Source: Escallonia rubra (Eukaryota; Streptophyta; Magnoliopsida; Escalloniales; Escalloniaceae). From it: a stretch of DNA of 64,000 nucleotides. The position numbers and the translations under genes were made by a program. The stretch's first letter is position 1; the number at the start of each line of letters is the position of its first letter. The notes under the pieces are model-generated. The model was not told the DNA's origin and ran no database searches. It was given only the letters and a program-made list of their open reading frames with translations. The DNA is taken from positions 1 to 64,000 of the forward strand of contig JAVXUO010002104.1 in the NCBI GenBank assembly GCA_033065855.1, written 5' to 3'. Shown here piece by piece: positions 18,926-63,922 of this stretch.

Positions 18926-19368
18926 TGATATAACCGAAAATATCCCTCCAATCTACAAGCGACACGTGGCAGGTGTAGTGCGTGGCCCATGCCGGCTCAA
19001 TGCTGATATGGCACTTACCATATCAGTCACCAGACAGAATCCTAAAGGAAGTCTAACTCTACCAACAAAGATCAATATAGGATCCTCCAGGATCCTAGTG
19101 AGATTCGGATTAGAGTTGATTGAAGTCCAATTCTAAACGGATTCCTCTTACTACTACTATATAAAGGGGGTCAAGCCCCCCAGGTAAGCCTAAGTTCACA
19201 CATATACACATTGTGCAATATTGCTATTCAGAGTTCTACCTTGTTAGCCTTCTCTGACTTAAGCATCGGAGCGTTTCCCCGCCGGAACCCCACCCGGCGG
19301 TCATTCCGTGTTCTCTTTTGCAGGCCTGAATTCTGATACTGTTCCCGATCCAGTTTCTAGCTGCAACA
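18926..19368 (+). repeat. 5' LTR of the Tat element
   Basis: 443 bp, TG...CA, nearly identical to 29028-29470. It contains a TATA box (CTATATAAAGGGGG, about 19157-19170) followed by a small GGGGGTCAAGCCCCCC stem, probably close to the transcription start. Confidence 0.95.
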
Positions 19369-20678: not shown

Positions 20679-20753
20679 TCTCGAGAGATAACTCTCCAAG
20701 GAGGCAAGCCAGCAAAGCAACCTAAGCGCGATGATCGATGTCCAAAAGACCGA

Positions 20754-23700: not shown

Positions 23701-24956
23701 TCATAGATCAAGAACCCTGCTGGATGGACATCATCGACAAATACTTGTCCACAGGCGAATTACCAAGTGAAAGACATGAGGCGAAGAATCTTCGTGTCAA
23801 AGCTGCACGGTATGCCTTAGTAGAAGGGACTCTATATAAGAAATCATTCAGCCTTCCTTACCTCAGATGTCTACGCCCATCGGAATCTCTATACGCATTA
23901 CAAGAAGTACATGAAGGGATATGCGGCCAACACCTCGGAGGGAGGACATTGGCACAGAAAATATTTAGCCAAGGATACTACTGACCTACCATGCAGAAGG
24001 ACGCAATCGAATTCACGCGAAGATGCGATAAGTGTCAGAAGTTTGCACCGGTTTCTCATACACCAGTTGCTCCTTTAACTTCGATTGTTTCTCCCATTCC
24101 CTTTGCTGTATGGGGAATGGATCTACTGGGACCGTTTCCCATGGCGTCGGGGCAACGGCGATTTGTGATCGTGACAATAGACTACTTCACCAAATGGACC
24201 GAAGCAGAATCTTTGGCAACCATTACTTCAGCCAAGTGTGAAGAATTCTTCTGGAAAAATGTCATCTGTCGTTTTGGAATACCAAGGGCTTTGGTCGTTG
24301 ATAATGGAAAACAATTTGACAACAACAACTTTCGAACCTTTTGTACGAATCTGTCGATCGATTTGAGATTCACTTCTGTAGCCCATCCACAATCCAACGG
24401 ACAGACTGAAAACATGAATCGAAGCATCCTACAAGGATTGAAGAAGAAGCTAGACGATGCTAAAGGCGCATGGGTGGACGAACTCCCCAAAGTGTTGTGG
24501 GCTTATCGAACAACCCCGCATTCAGTTACAGGGGAAACACCTTTCTTACTCTGTTATGGAACGGAAGCAATGTTGCCAGTTGAGATAGGAGTTCCAACAA
24601 TACGGGCCTTACACTTCAACGAATTAAGCAATGAAGATGGACTCCGAGCAAATCTTGACTTGGTAGAGGAAGCTCGAACTCAAGCCCATGCACGATCTGT
24701 CGTCATAAAACAACGAGTGGCACGATATTACAATCAAAGAGTCCGATCCAGGCAGTTCAACGAGGGAGATTTAGTTCTTCGCAAACTAGAAGTCTCCGAT
24801 CCAAAGGCAGCGACGGGAAAGTTATCTCCAAACTGGGAAGGACCCTACCGTGTTATAAAGGTGCTCAAACCAGGCACTTACTCGCTAGAGACATTTTCTG
24901 GGGAACCGATCCCTAGAACTTGGAATGCAGAGAACTTGCGCAGATATTACCAGTAG
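20754..24956 (+). pseudogene. Tat element pol (PR-RT-RH-aRH-INT), one nonsense codon
   Basis: Positions count from the ATG at 20754, though the frame is already open from 20679. A zinc-knuckle-like motif CHFHNDHGHTTDNC lies near residue 45. The protease active-site motif IDNGSSADVL is near residue 180. RT includes WRICIDYTDLNKACQKDSYP and the YVDDML box near residue 549. RNase H follows with the IYYISKVLQ and LTDQPLRKVL motifs. A second RNase H domain has LYVDGSS (about residue 833), EAEYEALLAG and YSDSQLVVNH, with intact acidic residues. The integrase zinc-finger region is cut by TGA at 23982-23984, at the usually invariant Trp of GYYWP. The frame then reopens through RRCDKCQKF and the D-D-E core (MDLLGPFPM, VVDNGKQF, PQSNGQTENMNRS) to the stop at 24956. 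All catalytic residues I can check are present, so the lesions look recent. Confidence 0.92.
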
Positions 24957-27976: not shown

Positions 27977-28895
27977 TGCCCGAGCAGAATCTCGACCGAA
28001 CACTCTGCCCGAGCAGAGTGACTAAGGCCGAACAGAATTTTGCCCGAGCAGAATCTCGACCGAACACTCTGCCCGAGCAGAGTGACAACGGCCGAACAGA
28101 ATTATGCCCGAGCAGAATCTCGACCGAACACTCTGCCCGAACAGAGTGACAACGGCCGAACAGAATTTGCCCGAGCAGAATATCGTCTGAACACTCTGCC
28201 CGAGCAGAGTGACAAAGGCCGAACAGAATTTGCCCGAGCATAATCTCGTCCGAACACTCTGCCTGAGCAGAGTAACAACGGCCGAACAGAATTATGCCCG
28301 AGCAGAATCTCGTCCGAACACTCTGCCTGAGCAGAGTAACAACGGCCGAACAGAATTATGCCCGAGCAGAATGTCGTCCGAACACTCTGCCCGAGCAGAA
28401 TCACAAAGGCCGAACAGAATTTGCCCGAGCAGAATCTCGTCCGAACACTCTGCTCGAACAGAGTAACAACGACCGAACAGAATTATGCCCAAGCAGAATC
28501 TCGTCCGAACACTCTGCCCGAGCAGAATCACAACGGCCGAGCAGAATTATGCCCAAGCAGAATCTCGTCCGAACACTCTGCCCGAGCAGAATCACAACTG
28601 CCGAACAGAATCATGTCCGAGCAGAATATAGTCCGAGCAGAACCATGTCCAAGCAGACTCCTTCCCGAACAGAACGATGTCCGAGCAAAAAATGGTCCGA
28701 ACAGAAGCATGTCCGAGCAGAATCCTTCCCGAACATAAGTCTGCCCGAGCAGAATCCTATCCGAACAGAACCATGTCTGAACATAATATAGTCCGAACAT
28801 AACCATGTCCGAGCAGAATCCTTCCCGAACAGAATCATGTCCGAGTAGAAACTGGTCCGAGCAGAATCTCATCCGAGCAGAACCCTGTCCGAGCA
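27977..28895. repeat. Hierarchical minisatellite array (about 15 bp in 63-64-bp units)
   Basis: Unit starts TGCCCGAGCAGAAT are at 27977, 28041, 28105, 28168 and 28231, so the period is 63-64 bp. Each unit is itself built of about four 15-17-bp blocks of the form CCGA(A/G)CAGA(A/G). Downstream of about 28610 the higher-order unit dissolves into plain 15-17-bp repeats (GTCCGAGCAGAATCAT type). Apparent open frames across it are by-products of a period near a multiple of three. Confidence 0.95.
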
Positions 28896-35941: not shown

Positions 35942-37870
35942 CTAAGCTGTCTTATTGTTGTCACCGTTGTAGCGAATATTTTCACGGATGGTGTAGATCG
36001 CTTGTATCGCTGGGAGAGTGAAAAGGGTAAAGGCAGCGATGACCAAGATAACCGCCCAAGGGTTACTGAAGTAGTATTTTCTCAGTGCCGCACAATTGCG
36101 TCTCACTCTTGCTAAATTAGTGTGCGAGTAGCTGATGCAGTAATTGTGCACTTCCTTCCATTGTGGGAAGAACGAGAAGTCCGTGAGAACCACTTCTTTG
36201 CATAGGTCTTTGAAGAGCTTCAAGGTACTTTCACGCGCGCGCCCCCAGGCTCTCTTGTATGACTCCTGCCTTCTCAAGCAACTCAACGTCGGCTTCAACG
36301 TCGATGAGTGTATACATGAGGAAGGCATAAGACGTGACGTATCTCTGAATGCCAGGATAACATTGCTCAAAAGCAATGAGGTTTCTCAGGAGTGGCTCAG
36401 TGGCGTCATCGACGCACAGTTGTGGGACTGCGAATTTAGTGTTGCCACACAACAAGAAGTTCTAAGAAAGGAGATAATAGGATGATCTACGCCTGTTGTA
36501 TATGCAGCATGGGGGAGTGTCAGAGGTCCGAGGACCGCAGAACCAATGAAACCAACAAGATGTGTTTAATTCCACGTCTAGGTCCTCTGCTTCGCGGGGC
36601 GTAAAGATGACTCCTGCACTTGCAAGTTCAGTTGCAGAATATTTCATGATGGGATAATAAGGTTGCTTTGGTGAGGGAGTTCCAGTAGTGCCACAGAGCC
36701 AAGAAAGACAACCAGTTGACCGTGATTCAGAGTCTATGTCCTCTCCAGTACCGGCCTCGAGGTCAGACACTGAAAAGAAGCGGAACAGAGAACAGGAAAG
36801 ATTAGTTGAAAAAAAAAAAAGAAATTGAGGCATCATGATTTATGGTTGTTCCTCAGAGACCCAATAGAAAATATAAATCAATTTGGTTGGAACTTCATTC
36901 ATTTTTAGGCATTACCCATATAGTTCTTTGCAGTTTTCTTCCCAATACCTTCTGGATTAATTTATGCTCTTCATTCTATTTGGTCTAAGTTAATGAAATC
37001 CACTGTGACCTTATTTCGGGGAAAATAAAGAGTCATTTCGCTTTCTTTACCTGGTGATGGGTCGTTTCCTAAGCCGTCTTTACTACGAGGCATAAACGAA
37101 GTGTGTAAAATTCCGAGTATATGAAGAGGAAGAGGTGGCTTGCTTGATTCTCGCCTAGCGGGAATCTGTCTGTCGAAGAATTCAAGGATGAAGTCTGAAA
37201 GGGAATGATCATCATCCCTTTGCATTTTTTTTACAGTGAGGTTGAATAAATCGTCGAGGACAAAGAAGGGAATCTGGTTCTCCAGCAGTTGCAAGTCATG
37301 CCTGACGTTATGGAATTTCAAAGTGTTGCCGAAAATGGGGTCATCGCTTCTTATGTACCTCTTCCTAGAGGTCCACAGGAGTTCAATTATAAATGCTCCA
37401 TCGGTGAGCATCATTTTGGCAAAATCAAGATCAGGTAGAGGCGCATCTCGAGAATCTTCTTTATAGCAACTCCGAGCTTCGGGTAACTTCTGCACCACGG
37501 CAGCCGCGCATTTACGAATGAGATCACCATGACCTTCACGCTCTGAGCTATGTTCAAAAAGGCGATTCATGTAATTTACTTTGATCTCCTCCATATCTGA
37601 AAAATGCTTTTCAGCATTGTGGTGATGAAGAGGTCCGATGGAGACGACACGCGGGGTATAAGCAGGCCCGTTTCCTTGTCGAAGCTTATCAGGAACCCTG
37701 TATACGCAGGGTTCGGGTTCGCCTTCCTTGGAGAACGATTTGACTTTAAAATCTCGAATTTTCATGTCGATCATGTTTACAACTTGCTGAGTTTGTTCTT
37801 CTATTTGAGAGGACGTCCTTTCTTGCTTCTTCTCGCTTCCTTGCGAGGCATGCTCAGGTTGTGCTGCCAT
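35942..37870 (-). pseudogene. DUF247 (UPF0481) copy F, intron-containing, probably disabled
   Basis: Exon 1 (37870-37051) starts MAAQPEHASQG and carries CVYRVPDKLRQ, YTPRVVSIGPLHHHN, LTDGAFIIELL, DLQLLENQIPFFVLDDLF and LPLHILGILHTSFMP. A GTAAAG donor at 37050 and a CAG acceptor ending at 36770 define a 281-nt intron that keeps frame (PSP|VSDLEAG). Exon 2 then gives KYSATELASAGVIF, CVDDATEPLLRNLIAFEQC, KEVVLTDFSF and the C-terminal helix WAVILVIAAFTLFTLP. Two problems remain: TAG at 36462-36464, inside a stretch longer than in copies A and B, and a +1 shift in a five-G run near 36245. The shift could be a sequencing error. A TATA box (CTATAAATAAAG, minus strand, 37987-37976) is about 105 bp upstream. 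It is a more distant family member than A, B, D and E. Confidence 0.8.
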
Positions 37871-37975
37871 CGATGTTGTGCAATATGACTATCGCAACCT
37901 ATTGAATGGTTGTGCAATATCACGATTCCGAGTAGGAGCAAGAGAAAACTCCTTGCCAGTGCCTGAGGGGTTGTT

Positions 37976-42949: not shown

Positions 42950-43453
42950 ACAAGAATAATCATATGTATTGCGTTGGCTTATCAGGAATTAAAGCAGAGA
43001 GAGACTAGGAAAAGAAGAGAAATTTAAAAAAAAAAAGCTTGAGAAAAGAGGCCAATATACGCCTAAAGTGGGCTTGCAAATATTGCTTCTTAGAATTGAC
43101 GAGGAGATTTAGAAAAGGCAAAAGTGCCTCTCTAATTAGTTGTCGATAACTTATTGCTAAAACCTTGGAATTTCTAACATGAATGAGGTTGTGGTCACTA
43201 GGAAGAGTTCGTGCCACATACACCCCTTCTAGTGTTCTTCTTCGTGTTCTTATTTGTTGCCTTTTCAATGCAATCCTAACAACCAAATAAGTTTTCTGTC
43301 TCCAAGGTTCTCTATGAGTTAGCATTGCCTGAGTTGAAGAGGTCTTGTCTTCCATAATAATGTGACACACTAACTAAGAAACTAGCAGGAGTTTAGACGA
43401 ACCATTGTTTCTCGTAGAAAAACAAGCCAACGGCTCTAACATGGAGAGCTTAT
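42950..43453. other. Spacer between the CACTA and chromovirus elements
   Basis: About 500 bp of host-like DNA with an A-run at 43022-43036. Minus strand 43005-43370 is open but unrecognised and Arg-rich. No feature is supported. Confidence 0.45.
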
Positions 43454-43951
43454 TGTCCCGCACTTTTTATATGGAGGCTGATTTTTAAAGGTTACGCCAT
43501 GCGGGCGCTCATTAGGCGCTTATGGGACGCTTCGTGGACGCTTACTTGGCAATTAGGTGGCAAGGCTTCCGGAAGGTTGAACATGTGTAACATGTTTAAC
43601 ATATGTAACATGTGTGAATATTCTAAAGTAGGAAAGTACTCTAGAATTCTAGAAGCATAATAGGATCCGTAGGATCGAATGTATCTCCACCGTTCGTTGA
43701 GGAGGTGGACTAGTATAAATAGGTGAGGCCTCACTTGGCCAAAGTATCCAAGACACATCCAATACATCTTTGTATTCAAGCTCTCTCCAAGTAGTCTATT
43801 GGGAATCCTTTCCCCAACCTCTTGTGTTCCGCTGCATATTTGTTTCCAACTTCGCCCAGCTCTACGGTTAGGCTGACTTAGCCGAGCAAGCGGGGGCTTG
43901 ATCTAGCTAAGTGCCGCACGGTTTCGGCTTAGGGAAGTTCGGTCCGTGACA
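43454..43951 (+). repeat. 5' LTR of the chromovirus derivative
   Basis: 498 bp, identical by eye to 46551-47048. TATA box TATAAATAG at about 43714-43722. A small repeated AACATGT motif lies near 43580-43615. Confidence 0.95.
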
Positions 43952-43953
43952 AG

Positions 43954-43965
43954 TGGTATCAGAGC
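43954..43965 (+). promoter_or_regulatory. Primer-binding site (initiator tRNA-Met type)
   Basis: TGGTATCAGAGC begins two bases after the 5' LTR. This is the standard complement of the plant initiator tRNA-Met 3' end. Confidence 0.9.
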
Positions 43966-44001
43966 TTGGTTACGACGAGTCGTGCCAAGCAAGGAGCAAC
44001 A

Positions 44002-46539
44002 ATGGCAGGCAAGGATACTAGCGTTGGAGCATCCGGAGTGGCCGAAGAGAATGCGGTCGTGGTCGAGCGTGGGCGAGATCCATTACCACCCGCCGGTGGG
44101 AAGAAGGGTGGTCGAGGCCAAAGTAAGTCTAGTGATGCACTTGCTTCGTTGGATGGCCGAACGGGTCGCTTGGAGATTGCTATGGGTGATGTCAAAGATC
44201 ACGTGGGAATGGTCGAGCAAAATCTACAGACGTTGGAGGATCACGTCTTAGAAGAGCTCGACTCGCTCAAGAGGGCGGTGGGCGCCCAAGACGAGCTACG
44301 TGAAAGGTTCACGGAGTTGTTCAATAGTTTGCAAGAACAACTCGATGTGGTGAAGGCTAGCGTGGAGGAGACGAGGCAAGACGCGGCGATGTGCAAGAGA
44401 GCTATCGCGGGTGGAGCGATTGCCACTCCTAGTCCAAGGGTGGACACGCCAAAGCCAAAGGAGTTCGGAGGCAAGCGGGATGCCAAGGAGCTCGACAACT
44501 ACATATGGCACATGGAGCAATATTTCGAAGGTGCTAGCATCACGGATGAGAAGACAAAGGTAAGAACTGCGACTCTCTATCTTACGGATACCGCAACTCT
44601 ATGGTGGCGTAGAAAGCATTGCGAGATAGAAAAGGGGTTGTACACCATAGATACGTGGGAAGTGTTCAAAAGGGAGATCAAAAAGCAATTCTATCCGGAG
44701 AATGTAGCCTACGAAGCAAGAAGGAAGATGAAGGAATTGAGGCATAAGCGTAACATAAGCGAATATGTGAAGGAGTTTACTACACTTATGCTTCATATTC
44801 CGAATATGGCGGAGGAAGATCTTCTATTCAACTTCGTCGACGGCCTCCAAAGTTGGGCCAAGAAGGAACTTCAACGCCGGGGCGTGAAGGATGTCGATGA
44901 AGCCATAGCAATGGCGGAGTCGTTGACGGAGTACGATCGAGGTGGTGAATCTTCAGAGCCAAAGTGGGAAGATGAAGCTTTGGAAGGCGACCACGCCAAT
45001 GGTGGGGGAGAGAGCCCTAAGGCGTGGCACAAAGGGGACAAGCACGCTAGCACGAACAAGTCCGAGGGCCGTGGCAAGCTAGAGGAAAAGCGAGTCAAGA
45101 ACAAGCCCAAGGACGGATGCTTCTTTTGCGGAGGGCCGCATTGGGCAAAGGATTGTCGGCGACAAGGCAAGTTGGCTGCCTTAGTCAAGGAGAAGGACGA
45201 GGAGAAGGCCGAACGTGAGTCGGTACGCATAGGCTCAATCCAAGTCCTTAACGCGCTCCAAAGGAAGAATGTGCCGCAAGTCCCGATGGGTGAGGGACAA
45301 GCTTCTAAGAGCGAGGGGTTGCTCTACATGGAAGCGAAGTTGAATGGGAAGCTCGCTCATGTGTTAGTGGATACGGGGGCGACTCACAACTTCATCACGA
45401 TGGGAGAGGCCGAACGGTTGGGCCTCAACGTGGTTGACGGGGGAGGTTGGCTAAAACCCGTCAATGCGGAAGCGAAGCCCCTACAAGGCATGGTTCGAAG
45501 GGTCGAAATATGCCTTGGCAAGTGGAAGGGGTTCGTGAATTTCTCTGTCGCGCGGATGGATGATTTCAAGGTGGTGTTAGGCCTTGATTTCTTGCGACAG
45601 GTGAATGCTCTTGTGTCACCGTACAACAACGCGATGTGCATAATGGAGCGAGGCGCGGCTTGTGTGGTGCCATTGCTCGGGGGAACATCAAGCACCATGA
45701 CTTCTATGCGGCTATCGGGTATGCGACTAGTGCAAGAAGTCGAAAGGGAGGAAGCCAAGAAGAGTGGGGGCACTTACTTGGCGAGTCTCAAGGTTGAAGA
45801 TCGTGTTGTGCTGCACGAGTTTGAGAAGCGGCAACCACCTAGGAGGAAGGTGGGCGATCAAGGCAAGCTTGACCGGGGGGCCAAGCCACAAAACGTGGTA
45901 CCATGTGGGATGGCGCCACCAAAGGAGGAAAAGTTGTCGACTACTTCGAAGGCAAAGGGGGAGATCGTCAAGCTAATCAAGGAGGGCCTACAACGCGATC
46001 CCTTAGCCAAGGAGTTGCTACATCTTGTGAAGAGTGGGAAGACCCAACGATATCGGGTGAAAGGAGACCTACTCTACACAAAGGATGGACGAGTGTACGT
46101 GCCAAAGTGGAGAGACCTAAGGAAAATGGTCATACGAGGGAGTCACGACACTCAGTCGACGGTGCATCCGGGGCATCGACGGACATATGCCTTGGTGACT
46201 ACGGCATACTTTTGGCCTCAAATGAAGAAGGAGGTGCAAATGTGTGTCAAGACTTGTCATGTGTGCCGACAAGTCAAGGGAGAGAGTCAAGCCGAGGAGG
46301 CTAAACTCTTAGATGCATCGCAAGTTTTGCATGACTTGCAAAGGCGTGAGGCCGAGTACGTGCTTGGGGATAGGCTTGAACAAGGACGGAATGTTCCACC
46401 GAAGCAGCACTACTTGGTCAAGTGGAAGGGATTGTCGGAGCATGAAGCGACTTGGGAATTGGCGGAAGAGCTCGGACAGTTCGAAGATCTCGTGGATCGC
46501 TATCACGAGGAAGTTGCGACGAGGGCGTCGCGCAATTAG
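44002..46539 (+). CDS. Fused gag-protease-integrase finger-chromodomain protein, 845 aa, no RT
   Basis: The start is the first ATG (44002), 50 bp after the LTR. Residues 50-130 are heptad-rich and probably coiled coil. The gag core follows from about residue 150 (KPKEFGGKRDAKELDNYIWH, TLYLTDTATLWWRRKH, FYPENVAYEARRKMKELRH). The CCHC knuckle CFFCGGPHWAKDC is at 373-385. The aspartic protease motif VDTGATHNFIT is near 456-466, with VVLGLDFL further on. At about 700-760 comes the integrase HHCC finger (HPGHRRTYALV, CVKTCHVCRQVK). Sequence then jumps to a chromodomain at about 780-835 (EYVLGDRLEQ, HYLVKWKGLSEHEATWELAEE). The usual RT, RNase H and D-D-E core, about 700-800 residues, are absent, yet the frame is open from end to end. 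It probably makes particles and could be mobilised by an autonomous relative; the chromodomain may still steer targeting. Confidence 0.9.
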   Translation: MAGKDTSVGASGVAEENAVVVERGRDPLPPAGGKKGGRGQSKSSDALASLDGRTGRLEIAMGDVKDHVGMVEQNLQTLEDHVLEELDSLKRAVGAQDELRERFTELFNSLQEQLDVVKASVEETRQDAAMCKRAIAGGAIATPSPRVDTPKPKEFGGKRDAKELDNYIWHMEQYFEGASITDEKTKVRTATLYLTDTATLWWRRKHCEIEKGLYTIDTWEVFKREIKKQFYPENVAYEARRKMKELRHKRNISEYVKEFTTLMLHIPNMAEEDLLFNFVDGLQSWAKKELQRRGVKDVDEAIAMAESLTEYDRGGESSEPKWEDEALEGDHANGGGESPKAWHKGDKHASTNKSEGRGKLEEKRVKNKPKDGCFFCGGPHWAKDCRRQGKLAALVKEKDEEKAERESVRIGSIQVLNALQRKNVPQVPMGEGQASKSEGLLYMEAKLNGKLAHVLVDTGATHNFITMGEAERLGLNVVDGGGWLKPVNAEAKPLQGMVRRVEICLGKWKGFVNFSVARMDDFKVVLGLDFLRQVNALVSPYNNAMCIMERGAACVVPLLGGTSSTMTSMRLSGMRLVQEVEREEAKKSGGTYLASLKVEDRVVLHEFEKRQPPRRKVGDQGKLDRGAKPQNVVPCGMAPPKEEKLSTTSKAKGEIVKLIKEGLQRDPLAKELLHLVKSGKTQRYRVKGDLLYTKDGRVYVPKWRDLRKMVIRGSHDTQSTVHPGHRRTYALVTTAYFWPQMKKEVQMCVKTCHVCRQVKGESQAEEAKLLDASQVLHDLQRREAEYVLGDRLEQGRNVPPKQHYLVKWKGLSEHEATWELAEELGQFEDLVDRYHEEVATRASRN

Positions 46540-46550
46540 GTGGGGGAGAA
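46537..46550 (+). promoter_or_regulatory. Polypurine tract of the chromovirus derivative
   Basis: The purine-rich GGTGGGGGAGAA abuts the 3' LTR and overlaps the end of the stop codon region of the ORF. Confidence 0.8.
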
Positions 46551-47048
46551 TGTCCCGCACTTTTTATATGGAGGCTGATTTTTAAAGGTTACGCCATGCG
46601 GGCGCTCATTAGGCGCTTATGGGACGCTTCGTGGACGCTTACTTGGCAATTAGGTGGCAAGGCTTCCGGAAGGTTGAACATGTGTAACATGTTTAACATA
46701 TGTAACATGTGTGAATATTCTAAAGTAGGAAAGTACTCTAGAATTCTAGAAGCATAATAGGATCCGTAGGATCGAATGTATCTCCACCGTTCGTTGAGGA
46801 GGTGGACTAGTATAAATAGGTGAGGCCTCACTTGGCCAAAGTATCCAAGACACATCCAATACATCTTTGTATTCAAGCTCTCTCCAAGTAGTCTATTGGG
46901 AATCCTTTCCCCAACCTCTTGTGTTCCGCTGCATATTTGTTTCCAACTTCGCCCAGCTCTACGGTTAGGCTGACTTAGCCGAGCAAGCGGGGGCTTGATC
47001 TAGCTAAGTGCCGCACGGTTTCGGCTTAGGGAAGTTCGGTCCGTGACA
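46551..47048 (+). repeat. 3' LTR of the chromovirus derivative
   Basis: 498 bp, no difference seen from the 5' LTR; the offset between the copies is a constant 3,097 bp. Confidence 0.95.
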
Positions 47049-47529
47049 TTAGGCTATTAATCGAACTTTACAATCGTGAAGTTTTGGTAAGAGCCATTTC
47101 TAAAGTTAGAATCTTTGGAACCACTTCCTTCCCTTCCCACGTTTGTTGTCCCGAGCCAAGAAGGCGCCACGACGAGCACGTGTGTGTAGGAAGGCCGATG
47201 CTTAAAATCAAATTTAAACGAACCTATATCACCAAGCAGTGCTAATAATGAACTCATGACGTGGTGTGGTATTTTTCGATACTAGATTATGTTCAAGGAT
47301 CCAATTCATTAAAAACGAAAAAAGTTCTACTACTTATGTGATTCCAGCCCTAATAGAATGTAACACTGTTGATGATTCTCGTGTCTTTGATGCATGTGCG
47401 GTCAAGGAATGCCAAGCCAAGAATATTGACGTGTATTTGTGTATTGTTTGGTTTATCGATCGGATCTTGTTTGCTATAATGAACTTCCACTTGGTTTGTC
47501 ACATGTTTTTTGCTAAAATGAATATCTAA
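47049..47529. other. Spacer between chromovirus LTR and Helitron H4
   Basis: About 480 bp. An open frame (47266-47525) is not recognisable. No feature is supported. Confidence 0.45.
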
Positions 47530-54448: not shown

Positions 54449-54944
54449 TGTTAATAAATTGGGTCCCATTATCCGTCCACTAACAGATAGTGTGTATTTG
54501 TTAGTCTGGATAATTACAGTTAATTAGAGGATATTTATCTCCTAAATATTTGAGATAAATACAATATTTATCTTCTAAGTGTTTGAAGTAAATACATCTT
54601 TATCTCCTAAGAGTTTGAGATAAAGTCAGTCTCTAATTGTATCTTTATATAAAGGTTAGAGATATCTCAATAAATTACAAGTCATAGACTACAAGTGACA
54701 GACAATGAGTCACAAGACAATCCCTCTCTCTATAGCGCTCTCTCTAGAGCAATCACCAAGCTCTAGGAGTTGGATCGTGGACGACGAACTCGACCCTCGT
54801 AGCCGTTACGGTACCTGCGAAAAAGGGCAAGCGTGTTGGAGGCTGGTAACAACAAGGATCCTACGTCGAAATTTTCGGAGACTTCGTACGGTATGTTTCC
54901 GAACCCATTACGTTATGTGGTAAGCGCATTTGATCGTTTCAACA
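54449..54944 (+). repeat. 5' LTR of the copia element
   Basis: 496 bp. It carries three or four internal repeats of a TATTTATCTCCTAA then GTTTGAGATAAATAC unit (54529-54622) and a TATATAAAG box at about 54646-54654. Confidence 0.93.
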
Positions 54945-56784
54945 TTGGTATCAGAGCATGATTACTTGGTGATTCGCCTTTAACATGCTAGTATAATTAT
55001 GTGCATGTTGTGTTTTTTTTCCGAATACATAAATATGAGACCCATTACAAAAATTCGAAATTTATTGAGCATGTTTTTCTGAAAAATAATTATATTTTTT
55101 TATTCTCCTATAGTTGAGGATGAACTCCGTAAACTTTCGTGAGTTTTGGATGCATGGTTTGTGAGAAATCATAATTTTATTTTTCAAGAAAACTGTGATT
55201 TTTTCGAATTTTGGGACTCAAATTCGGAGCCTGGTTGTTTGTTTTTATCATGATCGGTTGGTATATAATTAATCTATATCACATAATCTTTTCAACGGTA
55301 TATGGCACACATTATTAGGCTTAAAAACGAGAGAGATATGGCCTTCGAAAGTTGGCATTGCGGCCGTTGGAAAATTGGGGTTTAAAGGAAGAATATGAAC
55401 AGTGTATCCACGCGCTCAAGTCACCCGCAGACGCGCGACACGCGCCAAGCCGAGCCGCACACGTGGGCCACGCGCCAAGCCAGCTGACTGCACGCGCGCC
55501 ACGCGCCAGCCGTGGCTGCGACGCGCCTCAACCCGAGTAGCTTACACTCGCTTCACATGCCCCACTCGCGCGCGTGTTTCTCACGCGCCTGCCTAGAGGA
55601 CTCAGAAGCTGCCCCACCCGCATGGCGGCACGTGGAGACGCGTGCGGACGGTTTTTTGCCAGTGTTAGTCACCGCCGGCGAGTGATTCTTTTGCTTGGCT
55701 TTTGAATATTTTCTGTGTTGTTAAATTTACCTTTATACCCTCTGTGTGTGTTCTATTTAATTTTTAAATGACTTTTTCTATGAAAATTACCTTTAAATTT
55801 TTTTTTGATGCACACAGAATTTTTTCTTTAATTTCGGAGGGTATATTAGGGTTAAATTTACTGTTTGTCATCTTTCAAAAACTTATCTCTTGTTTTTTGG
55901 GCTATTTGTGAGTATTTTTGTGGTACTTTTGTTGTCCTAAAAATACGAATAATGCGTAAATATTAATTTTTTGCACTTCGTGAGCAAAAATAAATATTTT
56001 GGAGAGTTGTATGACATAGATAATTTTTGTCTTATTTGTTACATACAGTTGCCTTGATTTGCGTTATGCTTTAAATATATTTTTGTTAAAGTATGGTTGT
56101 TGGGTTTTTCGTAAGCCCACACTTTTAAACCATTTATTTTTTCAAGGCCTTGTCGCCCGTTTTCCTTGGAAGGAGAATGTGGCATATTCATCCATTTAAT
56201 TATCCTTTAACTTATTTTTTAGCCTGCTAGTTTTAGGTTAAATGGATGGATATTAGATTGGCATTCTAAAGAAGCTTATGTTAATGTGTTTACTTTTGCT
56301 TTAAGAAAGTTTTTTTTGAGAATAATGTGTTTTGCGACATCTCCATTTGTTTTATTAGAGTAGTTTGTAGTAGAATTCTCAGAGATGTTGTATTATATTA
56401 TTTCCTTGTATATTTTCAGAAAGCCATGTACGTGGATGTAATTTCACACGCACATTATTCAAGTCAGAATTTTCGTAGCATAAGTTATTAGAATGCCAAT
56501 AGGGCTCAATGGAGTCCTTACACACTTTATTGCATGGTGCAACTTTATATTGTTCTAAATTATCATGTGGATGATTTATTACATTATGGCTTATATGATG
56601 ATTAAATTTATTGCAAAAAATTACTTGAAAAAAGTTTTCCCAACTCACAAACATGGGAGATGATTACGAGCTTAGCAAATTTTCGATTTCATGATGTGAG
56701 GAAGGATTATGTTTTTCATTTGAATTTTTTGAAATAAATAGAAGGATGTATAATTAATGTCTTTTCCTTGCGCAATCTAATGTA
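54945..56784 (+). other. Leader region of the copia element
   Basis: It begins with the primer-binding site (TTGGTATCAGAGCATG). A GC-rich island at about 55405-55640 is full of CACGCGCC and related motifs, contrasting with AT-rich DNA on both sides. No ORF in it is convincing. The rest up to the gag ATG is AT-rich 5' untranslated sequence. Confidence 0.7.
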
Positions 56785-57615
56785 GTGAATATAATGGCCA
56801 CCAAGAATGTCATAGCTGATCTCGTTAAGGGTGAGAAACTTAACGGAGATAATTATGACGTTTGGCACAAAAAGATGAAATTCATGCTGAACGAACAAGA
56901 GCTCGAGGAGCACTTGACCAAGGAGATGGTCGCGCCCACTGAGGGGCAACCCCTAAGAGACCATACTGCCTACCAGAAGTGGAATCAGAAAGATCGTAGT
57001 GCGCGCTACACCTTGTTGAGCAGCTTGCAAAATGATCTAATTGGGCAGTATGATGAACTTCCAACTTGCAAAGCTTTATGGGATCAGCTCAAGTTCTCTT
57101 TTGGTGGAACCTCAACTACGCGGCTTCGTAGCCTTGTGATCAAGTTTGAGGAGTACACAAAAGACCCTAAGCATACCATGAGTGAGCATCTAAGAATGAT
57201 GTCTAATATAATTGGTAAGCTGAGGGATGCTGGACATGCGCTCACAGATGAGCAGCAAGTCAGAGCTGTCATAAGGTCCCTTCCTGCCTCATGGGCCAAT
57301 ATGAAACAGATATTGACCCATAGTGAAAACATCAAGAACTTTTCTGATGTTTCACAGCATGTCATCCTTGAGGCTGAGACTCGAGACGCTGACAAGGCCC
57401 TTACTTATGTCACCCAAGTGGGATCGCGCAATGCAAATGGCAAGCGCAAAAGGCAAAGTAAGAAAGGCAAGAAAGGCGAGGCTAGCACTTCTGTGCCAAA
57501 GGAAGGGAAAATGAAGAAACGCAAGAGAGGAAAACGTGGTGGGAAAAAGGATTTGTCTAAAGTCAAATGCTTCAACTGTCAACAGCAAGGACACTTCGCT
57601 CGTGATTGTACTTAA
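56785..57615 (+). pseudogene. Copia gag
   Basis: The likely start is ATG 56794 (MATKNVIADL) or 56785. It has the UBN2-type gag core (KLNGDNYDVWHKKMKFML, CKALWDQLKFSF, VIRSLPASWANMKQIL), a Lys/Arg-rich linker and the CCHC knuckle CFNCQQQGHFARDC at the end. A TAA (57613-57615) follows directly, and the frame continues open beyond it into protease, so it is a nonsense change in a polyprotein rather than a natural stop. Confidence 0.9.
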
Positions 57616-57666
57616 CCGAAGAGGGTACCTTCTGAATCTCTCTCTCAACTATGTGTTTCCTCACAT

Positions 57667-58233
57667 GTGATGGTTGTTCATTCCCAACCTGTGTGGTTTG
57701 TGCATACAGGTGCAACAAAACATGTAGCATGTGATCGAGAGGGATTTGTAGATTACCACCGGATACCAGTGGAGAGCAAACATATCTTCACGGGAAACAA
57801 TAGCTCCGAGGAGGTGCTAGGGGTTGGTTCTTACCAGCTCAAGTTGCGCACTGGGCGCACATTGATTCTTGAGGATGTGCGATATGCACCCACTGTTCGG
57901 CTTAATCTACTTTCAGTTACTGCTTTATTAGACAGTGGTTTTTCCTTTATTTTTAGGGGTAATAAGTTGGACATCTTTTTGGATGATGTTTTGTTCGGAC
58001 ATGGTTTTCGCATGGATAGTCTTTTTCAATTGGATTTAATTGATTCTCAGTCCTCTTATTCTTATGTGGTGAATGATAATATTGTGAATGATTCTACCTC
58101 CTGGCATGCAAGACTGGGCCACATAGGCCAAGATAGAATGACTCGTTTGGCTAGAGAAGGCCTTTTAGGCCCACTCGCAAAAGTCAATCTACAATATTGT
58201 GAGGCTTGTTTGGCCGGTAAAGCATGCATGTAG
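57667..58233 (+). pseudogene. Copia protease and GAG-pre-integrase domain
   Basis: In the same frame as gag. The protease motif reads WFVHTGATKHV where active copies have Asp before Thr-Gly or Ser-Gly; the catalytic Asp is replaced by His (codon CAT at about 57703). LEDVRYAPTVRLNLLSV follows, then the GAG-pre-integrase domain with WHARLGHIGQDRMTRLA and YCEACLAGKA. The frame is then broken by the hAT insertion at 58231. Confidence 0.9.
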
Positions 58234-58526
58234 GGCTGGCAAAATATGACCCAACCCATACAACCCAACCCAATCCGTTTATTTTTATTCTCTGCGGGTC
58301 AACCCAATCAAATCCGTGGGATGGTCACTTGACCCGCGGGTCAGAATTGGGTTGCTCAAATTAATAAGGGTCTGAACGGGTTGGGTCACTCGACCCGCGG
58401 GTCCAAACGGGTTCATATAAGTACAAGACATGAAAAAAAAACCCTAGATCTGAAAAGAACACAACACACTTCACACTCTGCCGTCGCCCGCTGGTTCTCT
58501 CCCGCGGCGCCTAGCTTCCTGCGACC

Positions 58527-58800
58527 GTGACAGCCACCATCATCTCTGGTGGAGCCTCTCTCCATCACCCGAGTATCAGCTTTTCCCACCGCCGGCAGTC
58601 CCTTTCTCCGTCGCCGGCGGCCTCCTTTCCGATTTCCCTCACTCCTAAATCCCAGTCGCGTGACAGGAAGGTCACAGCCGCCAAGGAGGTCAAGGCCAGG
58701 TTCGAGGAGGGCTTCATGGACGGCAACAACCGTTGGTTCTTCTTCAAGCTCTGGTTCTTAGGAGAGATCCAGCGCGCTGGTTGGTCCATTTTGTTTCTTC
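58527..58800 (+). pseudogene. Captured gene fragment, probably a plastid-targeted protein N-terminus
   Basis: Open and GC-rich compared with its surroundings. It reads as a Ser/Pro-rich, transit-peptide-like start ([18 protein letters not shown]) followed by [19 protein letters not shown], then [20 protein letters not shown]. The initiating codon is GTG in place of an expected ATG. I do not recognise the protein. It lies inside the hAT element. Confidence 0.45.
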
Positions 58801-59077
58801 TGTTTTTTCTTTCCAGACTTGGGCTATGGCCTGTTTCGTTTTAGGGTTTTTGTGGCATATATTATTTGATCCGAGATGGGTATTGATTTTTGAAGTTAAG
58901 ATATGAAGTTTTGATTAGGTTATATTTTGGTAGATAATTTATGTTTACAAGTTTGAACTCAATCAACCAGACTGCACCTTCTTCGCAAAGGAAGTTCAAA
59001 ATAAAGTAGGAAGTCGTGGAGTACACCTAGGCTGCAACCATGTAATTTGACTTGCTTTCCCTTGTGAAATTCAACAG

Positions 59078-59235
59078 GTTATTACCAAGGTCCTCCACTA
59101 ATGGCACCTCCACAGTATCCACAGTAAGCTGCTCCACCACCCAGGAGAGAACCAGGCTTTCTTGAAGAATGTTGCTGTGACCCCTCCAGCTTTGTGTTGC
59201 TATTGCCTCCTTGACGAGTGCTGATGTGACCCCTC
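59078..59235 (+). pseudogene. Captured fragment of a CYSTM-type (Cys-rich transmembrane module) protein
   Basis: After an acceptor-like TTCAACAG the sequence reads GYYQGPPLMAPPQYPQ, a stop, then AAPPPRREPGFLEE and CCCDPSS. This is the Gly/Tyr/Pro-rich tail and the Cys-rich C-terminal start of the small plant CYSTM family, whose members are membrane-associated stress proteins. A stop and frame breaks make it non-coding. Confidence 0.6.
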
Positions 59236-59743
59236 CATCATCTTCATTAGCTGATCCAGTAACTTTGGCTGGATTACCAATCTATCTCTTCAGTAATTCT
59301 GGAAATAAGTAGTTAACCCATCTTCCTCTTGCTAGGATTTAGGCAAAAGACATTACTTTCTTAGTGTTATGATTGAAGGGTGTGTATATATTCAGAATCT
59401 GTCATTGTATAAAAGTGATGTCTTTTCTTTTTTTAACAAGGATTTGTAATTTTTGTTTGCAATATGTCTTAATTGATATTTTTTCTTTTTAATTTGTAAT
59501 GCAGCGTGGATGCAAATACGTTCTAAATAACAGTATTTTAAAATTTTTAAAAAAAAGCAATATAAAAAAAATGGGCTGGGTCGGGTTGGGTCGGGTCTAC
59601 GTGACTAACCCGTTTTTTACCCAACCCGCAACAACCCAAGTCATGTTAGACCCGTTTCTGACCCAACCCGTTTCTGACCCAACCCATATCTGACCCATAA
59701 TTCTTTGACCCCACCCCACCCAACCCGCCCATTGCCACCCCTA

Positions 59744-60618
59744 CATGCAGGAAGCGTTTTGGAAAGGCTATGAGATCAACTCAACCACTTGAGCTAGTTC
59801 ACTCTGACATATGTGGACCTATGAGTATAAAGGCACGCCATAACGCCTCTTATTTCCTTACACTGATAGACGATTATACGCGATATGGTTATGTGTATCT
59901 GATATCTCACCGCTATGAAGCTTTGGATTGTTTCAAACACTTTGTAGCAGAGGTTGAGAATCAGAAAGAGAAGAATTTAAAAACTCTTCGCACTGACCGG
60001 GGACGTGGATATTTGTCAGATCACTTCAAAAAGTTTTGTGAGGAAAAAGGGATACGCAGGCAACTTACTATTTCTAATACTCCACAACAAAATGGTGTTG
60101 CGGAAAGAAAGAATAGAACATTGTTAAATATGGTTAGGTCTATGATGACGCAAGCAAACCTTCCACTATCTTTTTGGGGGGATGCCCTTTTGACTGCAGC
60201 CTATATACTTAATCAAGTGCTTTCACAATCTGTCAAATCCACTCCATATGAGCTTTGGAATGGCCAAAAGCCAAATTTGGATAACTTGCGCCCATGGGGC
60301 TCATCAGGTTATGTTCACATTACATCTCATAAGTATGAGAAACTAGGGCCTCGAGCTAAAAAGAGTATCTTCTTAAGGTATTCTGAAAACTCTAAAGGCT
60401 ATGTGATGTATGGTGAACATCCAAACGGTGGAAGGATTGAAATAGAGTCTCATGATGTCGATTTCATAGAGAGTGATTTTCCTAGCATTGGAGACGCGAG
60501 TAAGAATCTTGACCTCTATGAGTTAGAGGAGGTTGAAGCCACTTTACTATCTCCAAGCGAAGGTGGGGAATTAGTTTCTCATCCAGTTGTCGGTGAAGAT
60601 AATATAAGTGACTCTTAA
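59744..60618 (+). pseudogene. Copia integrase
   Basis: It resumes the copia frame after the nested element: [72 protein letters not shown] and [15 protein letters not shown]. The D-D-E catalytic residues are present, although the usual GGE after the second Asp reads GRG. It ends with an in-frame TAA at 60616-60618, before the reverse transcriptase. Confidence 0.9.
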
Positions 60619-61684
60619 CCTAGTGGGAGTATCCCAGACAGTGGGAACACACCACTAGGACCATTAGGTCAACAAGATTCTCAACTGCGTAGAGGTGCAC
60701 GAGGAAGAGTTCCACGTCGTCATTTTGAGATTGACGGAGAAATTCTTATGTGCACTCCAAATGATGAAGACGAGCCTACTTCTGTGGAAGAAGCCTTATC
60801 TTCGTCTGCTAGTAATGAGTGGATGGCTGCAATGAAGGATGAGTTGAGCTCAATGGAAAAGAATCAGGTCTGGGAGTTGATTGATCTTCTGTCAGGCGCA
60901 AGACTGTTGGAAACAAGTGGGTTTTAAAAGTCAAGCACAAGGCAGATGGGTCAATTGACAAGTATAAGGCACGTCTTGTGGCGAAAGGCTATACCCAACA
61001 GCGGGGTGTGGACTATGAAGACACTTTCTCCCCAGTGGTGAGATTTGCTTCAATTCGCCTGATCCTAGCTATTGTCGCCCAACAAGATTTAATTTTTTTT
61101 CATATGGATGTTAAGACTGTGTTTCTCAATGGAAAACTAGATGAAGAGATTTATATGGCTCAACCCAAGGGTTTTGAAGTCAAGGGACACGAGCTCAAAG
61201 TTTACAGGCTCAAACGTTCTATATATGGTCTCAAACAATCGTCTAGGCAGTGGTACTATAGGTTTCATCATGCCATTACCTCTATGGGTTTTGGAATGAT
61301 TGAACAAGACCATTGCGTTTACGTAAAACGATCCAAGAAAAGTATTATGATCCTTTCTTTGTATGTGGATGACATTCTTTTAGCTGGGAATAACATGAGT
61401 TCCATTATCGCCACTAAGTAGTGGCTGTCCTCAACTTTTGAGATGAAGGACATGGAAGAAGCTAATTAATTGCTCGAGTTTAAAATCATACGTGATCGTC
61501 CAAAGAGACTTCTTGATTTGTCTCAAGAGACATACATCAAGAAGGTCATTGAACGATTTCGTATGCATAACTCAAAACCCATAGACACTCCAACGGACAA
61601 GGCGTGTACTTTGACCACAGACCAATGCCCAAAGAATGATGAGGAAAATAATCGGATGTCCAAAGTGCCTTACGCGCTGCAATA
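60619..61684 (+). pseudogene. Copia reverse transcriptase, broken
   Basis: The frame shifts near 60898. From 60978 it reads [39 protein letters not shown] and the active site [11 protein letters not shown] (about 61360-61392), then TAG at 61419-61421, a further TAA near 61468, and a last piece with SQETYIKKVIERFRM. Expected AFLNG is TVFLNG and the conserved DVKTAF box is therefore altered. Confidence 0.9.
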
Positions 61685-61693
61685 GGGAGTCTG

Positions 61694-62332
61694 ATGTACG
61701 ATATGTTGTGTACACGTTTAGACATCTGCTTTGCCGTTAGAATGGTGAGTCGTTATCAGAGTAATCCTGGACCCGCTCATTGGAATGCGGTGAAGAGGAT
61801 TCTTCGATACCTACGTGGAACCGCTGATCTCGTCCTGTGTTATCATGGTGGAGACTTGAGACTGAGAGGATACATCGATGCTGATTGGGGCGGTGATAGA
61901 GATGAGTGCAGATCCACTTCAGGTTATGCATTCATACTAGGAGGTGGAGCTATCTCTTGGTGGAGCAAGAAACAGACTTGCATTGCCCTATCCACGATGG
62001 AGTCGGAGTATGTTGCTTGTTCAGCAGTCCAGGAAGCTGTTTGGTTGAGATCATTCTTACAGTCTTTAGGGGTTACAGCTCATGTAGACGAGGTTGTCAC
62101 TGTTCACTGCGACAATATAGCTGCCCTAAATTTTGTAAAGGACCCCAAATATCATGGGAAGGCCAAACACATAGGCCTTCGTTATCACTTCATTAGAACT
62201 TTAGTTGCACAAGGAGAGGTGACCATGAAGCATATACCTACTAGCGAAATGGTGGCTGATCCTTTTATCAAGCCTATTGCTAAAGATGTTTTCCTTTATC
62301 ATGTTAGGAGTATGAGACTATGTAGGTTTTGA
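61694..62332 (+). pseudogene. Copia RNase H
   Basis: YQSNPGPAHWNAVKRILRYL, then YIDADWGGDRDECRSTSGYA, LSTMESEYVACSAVQEAVWL, VHCDNIAALNFVKDP and the final HYHFIR-like and DPFIKPI motifs. The catalytic D-E-D set is present. It is separated from RT by stops at about 61683-61693. Confidence 0.9.
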
Positions 62333-63421
62333 TATGTTTTATGCCATCTTATGTACTTGACGTTATTTATTATATTAAATTTTTGTTCCATGATTTGAGT
62401 TTATTTTAGAATGAATGGATAATCTTTGTGATTACATATACATCCTTATTGAGAGTGTCACCAGGCTTGAATTAGCCTACTCACACGGGTAATTCACCTT
62501 GGCGCTAAGATAACGAGCAAGATGAGACATAATTGTCTTAGTGCCAAGAGGGCGAATAAGATGATACAGCTTGTAATGCAAACATGATGCCTTAGTTGGA
62601 GTTAAGATGAGACCTAAAAAGATAGGTCGATCAAAGAGTATCTCCACAACTCTATGTAGCCTATTTACAGACGAATGTGAGATTTCAAGCATGCACTATG
62701 AGAGTGATTGGGCTGAAAAACTCAGGTTAGGCGCTTGTAGAGCGTCTAGACTCAGATTCATATCGCATATTTTATTATACATTTATGTGACACGCCCTCG
62801 CGGGTTACACCATAACATGCAAATGATATTGCATGTGCTTAATGCAGACTGACAGTGGGAGTGATGAATGAATCCCTGACCCAGCTTCATCACTGTGTGA
62901 GCCGCGTGGATCGATATATATATTTTGATCATATCTGGTTCCCTTTTCACCTTAGACTATGTCATGAAGAGGATACTCAATGTCGCTACTTTAGCATGTA
63001 CCTTTGGATCATGGATGATGCGGTCTCGCGGGGCATGTCTAGGAAAGCGATTGGGTCTAATTGGAATGACATGAGGGCTTTGGGAAGAAAGTTCAATATT
63101 ACACCATATTGTGTGATTTATAGTCCGAGCGACTTTGTCGATTTTCGTTTCATGAATGCATAACATATGAGAGGTTTAACACTGCTCACTATAAGGGATT
63201 TGAGAGTGTTTAATCTGGTGTAGTTGAACTATCTGGGGTACATACAAGATTTTTTGGAGTGATGTATTGTGTTAGTTTGGTGATGACTTAATACAATACT
63301 CCTCAACTGGATATCCTTTCTCGTAGGTCGCACATTCTATTTCCCTTATGAGGAGATGAGTGGCCGGGAGATACAGCGGGCCTGTACGACTTATTTGCCC
63401 TGTATGTGGTTGAGTGGGAGC
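62333..63421 (+). other. 3' untranslated region of the copia element
   Basis: No conserved ORF. It ends in GAGTGGGAGC, the probable polypurine tract, next to the 3' LTR. Confidence 0.7.
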
Positions 63422-63922
63422 TGTTAATAAATTGGGTCAATGGACCCATTATCCTCTCACTAACAGATAATGTGTATTTGTTAGTCTGAATAATTACAGT
63501 TATTTAGAAAATATTTATCTCCTAAGTGTTTGAGATAAATACAATATTTATCTCCAAAGTGTTTGAGGTAAATACATTTTTATCTCCTAAGAGTTTGAGG
63601 TAAAGTCAGTCTCTAATTGTATCTCTATATAAGCTAGAGATATCCCAATAAATTACAAGTCATAGACTACAAGTCAGAGACAATAAGTCACAAAACAATC
63701 CCCCTCTCTGTATCACTCTCTCTAGAGCAATCGCCAAGCTCTAGGATTTGGTTCGTGGATGAAAAACTCGACTCTAGTAGCCGTTTTTTTACCGACGAAA
63801 AAGATCAAGCGTGTTGGAGGCTCGTAACAACAAGGATCCTACGTCGGAATTTTCGGAGACTTCGTACGGTATGTTTCCGAACCCATTACGTTATGTGGTA
63901 AGCGCATTAGATCGTTTCAACA
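63422..63922 (+). repeat. 3' LTR of the copia element
   Basis: 501 bp. Relative to the 5' LTR it has an extra AATGGACC-like insertion near 63440 and numerous substitutions. The GCATT target duplication follows at 63923-63927, and the last 70 bases of the window are flanking DNA with no feature. Confidence 0.93.

What the first reader, a model, noticed from the sequence alone, without database searches (positions are those of the whole stretch)
43454..47048. Chromovirus derivative that lost RT, RNase H and the integrase core but kept one open frame ending in a chromodomain
Seen: identical-looking 498-bp LTRs, primer-binding site, polypurine tract and an uninterrupted 845-codon frame with gag, CCHC knuckle, protease, integrase HHCC finger and chromodomain. 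Known: non-autonomous elements that keep only GAG (TR-GAG class) exist, and chromodomains normally sit at the end of integrase. Inference: an in-frame loss of the enzymes left a protein that can form particles, process itself and perhaps bind chromatin, and that is still moving with help from a full-length partner. Retaining a chromodomain without an integrase core is unusual.
Basis: partly seen in the sequence, partly recalled or inferred. Interest (0 to 1): 0.78.

Follow-up and report, generated by a model that had tools for sequence, protein, structure and literature searches.

The report
Helper-dependent retrotransposon keeping a chromodomain
A family of shortened plant jumping genes that lost its copying and cutting enzymes still makes one protein with shell, protease, zinc-finger and chromatin-reader parts, and looks as if it is moved by a full-length relative that inserts at the same kind of target site.

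Summary
Window 43454-47048 is an LTR element with identical 498-bp LTRs, a PBS, a PPT and an open 845-codon frame: capsid, CCHC knuckle, protease, integrase HHCC finger, chromodomain. RT, RNase H, integrase core and integrase C-terminal part are absent.

It is not a one-off. Of 40 short-length LTR pairs read at the 3' coding region, 39 carry both internal junctions; C418 does not. Pairing suggests about 60 such copies. A full-length family (internal region about 4.7 kb; RT, RNase H, integrase and chromodomain seen in pieces) shares the PBS, PPT, LTR ends and a promoter stretch. It also shares an uncommon target: 4-bp duplications inside AGC-[NTAN]-GCT. This is strong evidence that the partner's integrase inserts both.

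Short and full-length copies form separate clades in the three segments tested. Among short copies dN/dS is 0.15 in the chromodomain and 0.24 in the HHCC region, against about 0.9 in the 15-codon linker between them. Both orphan domains appear kept by selection.

Known relatives are wheat Sabrina_SA and Quinta, TR-GAG and especially hop noaCRM: a new variant of a known kind. The chromodomain's role is inferred.

The parts
43450..43453 (.). left copy of the 4-bp target duplication (TTAT), preceded by GAGC
   Evidence: 3 of 4 bases match the right copy
43454..43951 (+). 5' LTR, 498 bp, TG...CA
   Evidence: 0 of 498 differences to the 3' LTR
43954..43965 (+). primer-binding site TGGTATCAGAGC (initiator tRNA-Met type; complementarity recalled)
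   Evidence: PMC3605345 passage reports a tRNA-Met PBS in beet chromoviruses
44002..46539 (+). single open frame, 845 codons plus stop
44446..44946 (+). capsid (Ty3_capsid / Retrotrans_gag)
   Evidence: dN/dS 0.098 among 15 short copies
45118..45156 (+). CCHC-type zinc knuckle, spacing C-X2-C-X3-H-X4-C
   Evidence: read from the translation
45331..45600 (+). aspartic protease with DTG
   Evidence: dN/dS 0.132
45825..45889 (+). remnant of the stretch just before RT
   Evidence: 83% DNA identity to the full-length partner
45926..45945 (+). approximate junction 1: RT and RNase H lost (about 400 residues)
46114..46278 (+). integrase HHCC (H2C2) zinc finger
   Evidence: dN/dS 0.244 for 45961-46299 in 39 copies
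46291..46347 (+). junction 2 with linker: integrase core and C-terminal part lost (about 300 net residues)
   Evidence: dN/dS about 0.9 for 46300-46344
46348..46509 (+). chromodomain
   Evidence: dN/dS 0.146 (0.080-0.290) for 46345-46512 in 39 copies
46540..46550 (+). polypurine tract GTGGGGGAGAA
   Evidence: same word before the partner's 3' LTR
46551..47048 (+). 3' LTR
47049..47052 (.). right copy of the 4-bp target duplication (TTAG), followed by GCTA

Best explanation
This is one copy of a semi-autonomous chromovirus family. It encodes its own capsid, nucleocapsid knuckle and protease, and takes reverse transcriptase, RNase H and integrase activity from a full-length partner family that shares its PBS, PPT, LTR ends, a promoter stretch and its target site (cross-mobilisation: about 90% likely, inferred). 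Two in-frame losses removed RT-RNase H and the integrase core plus C-terminal part, leaving an HHCC finger joined by a short linker to a chromodomain. Both were kept by purifying selection (supported by dN/dS). The most likely role, about 40%, is an adaptor: the HHCC-chromodomain piece joins the partner's integrase complex or the pre-integration particle and helps tether it to chromatin (inferred, untested).
For: Family: 39 of 40 short-length pairs read at the 3' coding region share both junctions (exception C418). Frame: 10 of 15 copies read over both pieces are open; 18 of 20 further copies are open in the last 667 bp. Selection: whole-ORF dN/dS 0.232; chromodomain 0.146 (0.080-0.290), HHCC region 0.244 (0.124-0.459), linker 0.906. 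No exchange with the partner seen: separate clades with support 1.000 in three segments. Partner: same PBS, PPT and LTR ends. Same target pattern and 4-bp duplication: 14 of 17 short or solo sites, 14 of 16 full-length sites, 6 of 8 LTR-B sites. Overlapping ages: 0-6 LTR differences in 12 short copies, 0-10 in 8 full-length copies.
Against: No transcript, particle or mobility data. The shared-versus-singleton count shows no shift for the chromodomain (N:S 3:5 shared, 5:9 singleton) and only a modest one for the HHCC region (3:9 against 14:10). dS is uneven along the ORF (0.04 to 0.23), a sign of recombination. The full-length copies' chromodomain gives a weaker ratio, 0.435 (0.176-1.069). The linker interval is wide (0.690-5.408). 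2 of 4 LTR-B pieces are frame-broken. No partner copy was read whole, and 6 of 11 partner integrase pieces carry stops. The single-sequence structure model was uninformative (pLDDT 40).
Confidence: 0.7

Rival explanations
1. Plain gag-protease donor: the element moves on the partner's enzymes, and the HHCC-chromodomain tail is only a leftover that must stay open for folding or processing of the polyprotein, or because the DNA there carries 3'-end signals.
For: Capsid and protease are the most constrained domains besides the chromodomain (dN/dS 0.098 and 0.132). Wheat Sabrina_SA with GAG-Pro alone is abundant (PMC9744471 passages).
Against: dN/dS of 0.146 in the chromodomain against about 0.9 in the adjoining linker; an RNA or DNA signal would lower dS, not dN relative to dS (reasoning).
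Confidence: 0.2
2. Interfering element: the core-less HHCC-chromodomain piece competes with partner integrase and dampens or regulates the partner rather than helping it.
For: Short pairs outnumber long ones in the listed sites (43 to 21, plus 29 of 30 LTR-B pairs). Retaining the HHCC part alone would fit a competitor (inference).
Against: Partner copies are also young (0-10 LTR differences in 8). No direct evidence of interference.
Confidence: 0.08
3. One-off internal deletion or assembly artefact that looks open only because it is young.
For: Internally deleted full-length copies do exist (C418, C879), and the window copy has identical LTRs.
Against: 39 copies on different contigs, in two LTR types, share both junctions, with up to 7.4% divergence from the window copy (111 of 1500 in C1784). 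dN/dS is far below 1.
Confidence: 0.02

Closest known systems
Hop (Humulus lupulus) noaCRM, PMC12371157 (passages, and section 19 with its figure legend read whole)
   Same: Non-autonomous chromovirus derivative lacking RT, RH and INT and outnumbering its autonomous partner; the legend lists GAG, protease and chromodomain for autonomous copies and RT, RH, INT as what is missing, so GAG, protease and chromodomain would remain.
   Different: Hop elements are centromeric CRM with a CR-type chromodomain; the text does not state that an integrase finger or an HP1-like chromodomain is kept, or that it is under selection. Here an HHCC finger plus a Pfam Chromo domain are kept in one frame.
Wheat RLG_Sabrina_SA with partner RLG_Wilma, PMC9744471 (passages)
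   Same: Semi-autonomous element with GAG and protease, mobilised by a partner sharing PBS and LTR ends.
   Different: No integrase finger or chromodomain is described; partner and element have hardly any other sequence in common, whereas here they are 72-80% identical in shared coding segments.
Einkorn RLG_Quinta with RLG_Cereba, PMC11302176 (passages)
   Same: Old non-autonomous derivative of a chromovirus that keeps GAG and shares PBS, PPT and LTR ends with its partner.
   Different: [quoted passage not shown] the CR domain is on the partner's integrase.
TR-GAG elements (Chaparro et al. 2015, not seen; described in PMC5818461 passages)
   Same: Non-autonomous LTR element with a GAG frame lacking the POL polyprotein region.
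   Different: This element keeps protease, integrase finger and chromodomain. [quoted passage not shown]
Tos17 palindromic target ANGTT-TSD-AACNT (cited in PMC6911290, passages)
   Same: Palindromic consensus flanking the duplication.
   Different: Tos17 is Ty1/copia with a 5-bp duplication; here 4 bp, AGC-[NTAN]-GCT.

Membership tests
Chromovirus (Ty3/gypsy) derivative | gag-pol order with a chromodomain at the C-terminus, upstream of the PPT | tested here: met
   for domains, for position; partner has RT, RH, IN, chromodomain in that order in pieces
Chromovirus (Ty3/gypsy) derivative | clade (Tekay, Reina, Galadriel, CRM) by RT phylogeny | not tested
   no reference sequences at hand
TR-GAG | LTRs and a GAG frame | tested here: met
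TR-GAG | POL polyprotein region absent | tested here: not met
   protease, integrase finger and chromodomain remain; definition from PMC5818461 passages
Autonomous / non-autonomous partner pair (criteria in PMC9744471 and PMC11302176 passages) | same PBS | tested here: met
Autonomous / non-autonomous partner pair (criteria in PMC9744471 and PMC11302176 passages) | conserved LTR termini | tested here: met
   the LTR-B sub-family differs at the LTR start
Autonomous / non-autonomous partner pair (criteria in PMC9744471 and PMC11302176 passages) | active at the same time | tested here: met
   0-6 LTR differences in 12 short copies, 0-10 in 8 full-length
Autonomous / non-autonomous partner pair (criteria in PMC9744471 and PMC11302176 passages) | promoter similarity | tested here: met
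   about 80 identical bases through the TATA-like box in the one pair printed
Autonomous / non-autonomous partner pair (criteria in PMC9744471 and PMC11302176 passages) | shown cross-mobilisation | not testable with these tools
   only the shared target pattern supports it
Hop-type noaCRM | RT, RH and INT absent, GAG and protease present | tested here: met
   (an integrase finger is kept, the core is not)
Hop-type noaCRM | CRM clade with CR-type chromodomain | tested here: not met
   the domain matches the ordinary Chromo family and HP1, and the frame ends before the 3' LTR; clade itself not tested

The most novel reading that the evidence does not exclude
The family has evolved a core-less mini-integrase: an HHCC finger fused to a chromodomain, kept under selection apart from any catalytic core. 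It works in trans as a chromatin-targeting or assembly subunit for the partner's integrase, so that two element families share one integration machine with separately encoded catalytic and reader parts.
Probability: 0.3. Interest if true: 0.78.

Novelty: new variant of a known kind. Interest (0 to 1): 0.56.

Why it matters
It separates the chromodomain from catalytic integrase in a natural, recently active family. That makes it possible to ask whether a chromatin reader and the HHCC finger do useful work in trans. The shared 4-bp palindromic target also gives a simple sequence mark of which integrase moved which element, usable for pairing non-autonomous elements with their partners.

Tried and rejected
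Relatives outside the genome: viral contigs (PBS pattern followed by tblastn), phages, plasmids and PHROGs gave no confirmed relative. The structure prediction of the HHCC-chromodomain piece was uninformative (pLDDT 40). 'No target duplication' at the window copy was dropped once relatives showed a 4-bp duplication. The single-copy or collapse reading was rejected. A direct parent was sought among 20 further sites: 19 fell on the full-length side of the chromodomain tree, and the one on the short side, C1043, has the short structure itself. Junction-spanning DNA searches did not complete and were replaced by reading fetched pieces.

Rows dropped or partial: C1120 (5' end not found, apparent tandem LTR) and C2708b (same flanks as C2708a) were left out of the target count; C2891 has no 3' piece; pairing used only the 100 listed of 169 PPT sites and 100 listed of 184 PBS sites; 40 of 650 LTR candidates were scored. 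In C1043 only junction 2 was seen, so it is not among the 39. The partial copies C1924 and C811 align across both junctions but are not among the 39 either. One search stopped on a script error after its stop list and was redone.
Full report
WHAT IS THERE. Window 43454-47048 is a complete LTR element: LTRs of 498 bp with 0 differences, PBS TGGTATCAGAGC, PPT GTGGGGGAGAA and one open frame of 845 codons, 44002-46539. Pfam finds gag and Ty3 capsid, aspartic protease, Integrase_H2C2 and Chromo, and no RT, RNase H or rve at E<=1. The chromodomain aligns to HP1-type chromodomains (1ap0, E 2.3e-06; best hit 2h1e, 1.4e-06). In the 1ap0 alignment two of the three aromatic-cage positions are Y and W and the third is L (which residues form the cage is recalled). 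Seed-plant chromodomains are reported to lack the first and usually the last (PMC6317226 passage), so this one fits only in part. The HHCC region aligns weakly to foamy-virus and Ty3 integrase (E 0.009-0.015).

COPIES. The window lies in an assembly of 566 Mb in 3222 contigs. An LTR search scored 40 of 650 candidates, many in pairs about 3.1 kb apart. With up to 2 mismatches the PPT-LTR word occurs 169 times and the LTR-PBS word 184 times, with 0 in reversed controls. Pairing the 100 listed of each gave 67 pairs: 43 short (2.3-2.8 kb apart), 21 long (4.4-5.0 kb) and 3 other. Of these 43, C418 proved to be an internally deleted copy of the full-length type; of the 3 other, C879 is of the full-length type and C1043 of the short type. 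A second LTR type, which begins TGTCACGGAC, has 64 exact sites; 30 paired, 29 short and one 8.2 kb apart. Counting overlaps once, that is about 60 short pairs, a lower bound for this search.

JUNCTIONS AND PARTNER. A long copy (C2070) was read in pieces. One piece holds an open 523-codon stretch with RT and RNase H and an open 490-codon stretch with integrase and chromodomain, separated by a stop in that copy. Of 11 partner pieces spanning integrase to PPT, 5 were open throughout and 6 carried at least one stop. No partner copy was read whole, so whether any is intact is not known. Against the partner, the short element joins the stretch before RT to the RNase H/integrase boundary (about 400 residues absent), then the HHCC finger to the chromodomain through about 18 residues (about 300 net residues absent) (counts from the alignments). 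Of 40 short-length pairs read at the 3' coding region, 39 carry both junctions (15, 4, 20) and C418 does not.

SEPARATE LINEAGE. In chromodomain (19 short, 11 full-length), HHCC (19, 11) and capsid (15, 11) alignments, short and full-length copies are separated by a branch with support 1.000. Mean identity between the groups is about 72-80%, and within groups 94-98%. Of 20 further sites added to a chromodomain tree, 19 fell on the full-length side, six of them in a sub-family only about 87-89% identical to the others, and one (C1043) on the short side. The short lineage thus looks older than that split (inference from a midpoint-rooted tree), and no direct parent was found.

FRAME AND SELECTION. 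Of 15 short copies read over both pieces, 10 are open and 5 broken (3 by a stop, 2 by a frame-breaking deletion); the other indels are multiples of three. Of 4 LTR-B pieces 2 are frame-broken. In the last 667 bp 18 of 20 further copies are open. Pairwise dN/dS: gag N-terminus 0.507, capsid 0.098, NC linker 0.344, protease 0.132, protease-integrase linker 0.340, whole ORF 0.232 over 15 copies. With 39 copies the HHCC region is 0.244 (95% 0.124-0.459), the 15-codon linker 0.906 (0.690-5.408) and the chromodomain 0.146 (0.080-0.290). By LTR type the linker gives 1.541 (A, 30 copies) and 0.514 (B, 9 copies). Full-length copies, same method, 11 copies: HHCC region 0.147, core plus C-terminal part 0.119, chromodomain 0.435 (0.176-1.069). 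Results that do not help: the shared-versus-singleton count of two-state codons shows N:S of 3:9 against 14:10 for the HHCC region, but 3:5 against 5:9, no shift, for the chromodomain. dS is uneven along the ORF (0.043 in gag N-terminus, 0.234 in capsid), which points to recombination among sub-lineages.

TARGET SITE. Short and solo sites: exact 4-bp duplication in 14 of 17 with both flanks known; the window copy and C1907 match 3 of 4, C815 is irregular. Full-length: 14 of 16 (C1345 matches 3 of 4, C2469 none). LTR-B: 6 of 8. In the 28 exact sites the duplication has TA in the middle in 20, GC lies just left in 22 and GC just right in 22; in the window GC makes 4.0% and TA 7.4% of dinucleotides. 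[quoted passage not shown] 20 beet chromoviruses had 5-bp duplications (PMC3605345 passages). A shared, uncommon target pattern is my main evidence that one integrase serves both families.

TIMING AND CONTROL REGION. LTR pairs differ at 0, 2, 0, 0, 1, 2, 3, 0, 2, 6, 3 and 4 positions in 12 short copies and at 1, 3, 10, 5, 1, 0, 4 and 6 in 8 full-length copies. At 1.3e-8 per site per year (rate quoted in PMC5818461) these are under about 0.9 Myr. The 12 were among the LTRs most similar to the window's, so they may be biased to young copies. Partner LTRs are 87-90% identical to the window LTR over aligned columns, with 57-97 gap columns; in the one pair printed (C2008) about 80 identical bases run through the TATA-like box.

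HOW IT LIKELY WORKS. Supported by computation: structure, copy number, shared junctions, separate lineage, low dN/dS, shared target. Inferred: the element's transcript is packaged in particles built at least partly from its own Gag and cut by its own protease; the partner's RT copies it from the same kind of primer and the partner's integrase inserts it. The retained HHCC finger and chromodomain most likely act as an adaptor to the partner's integrase or to chromatin; this step is untested.

KNOWN OR NEW. The general arrangement is known from wheat Sabrina_SA and Quinta (PMC9744471, PMC11302176; passages), oat RLG_Beth (PMC13270711; passages) and coffee TR-GAG-type CRC elements (PMC5818461; passages). 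Hop noaCRM lack RT, RH and INT, which by the figure legend would leave GAG, protease and a CR-type chromodomain (PMC12371157; section 19 read). So losing integrase while keeping a chromodomain is probably not wholly new. In the listings and passages of my searches I saw no paper describing a retained integrase finger with an HP1-like chromodomain under selection without the core. The library holds open-licence papers only; subscription papers, including the original TR-GAG paper, were not seen.

Noticed in passing
G000 sites, e.g. C79:462044, C157:57263, C464:152594: A second LTR type (LTR-B) begins TGTCACGGAC, the exact inverse of the shared LTR end GTCCGTGACA; 29 of 30 paired copies are short and none is of full-length size, yet the target pattern is the same.
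   Followed up: partly
window 44443-44946 and the same segment in C870, C1784, C1455, C1907: The capsid segment is far more diverse at synonymous sites than its neighbours (dS 0.234 against 0.043 in the gag N-terminus), and these four copies form a capsid clade not seen in the chromodomain tree: likely exchange of capsid variants between sub-lineages.
   Followed up: partly
G000:C1120:222629-227851: Two PPT-LTR sites with a PBS site between them suggest a tandem arrangement LTR-internal-LTR-internal-LTR.
   Followed up: no
window copy, G000:C1907, G000:C1345, G000:C157 (LTR-B): In these four copies the only mismatch in the 4-bp duplication is at the fourth base, next to the 5' LTR; possibly an end-repair effect.
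   Followed up: no
window 11793-12485, 17885-18952, 36974-37888 (minus strand): Several DUF247 plant genes or fragments, partly duplicated at 85-97% identity.
   Followed up: no
window 20679-24953 and 54462-63922: A second, unrelated Ty3-type element with RT, two RNase H-like matches and integrase core, and a Ty1/copia-type element with repeats about 90% identical at its ends.
   Followed up: no
window 27977-28892: Tandem array of 16-bp and 64-bp units.
   Followed up: no
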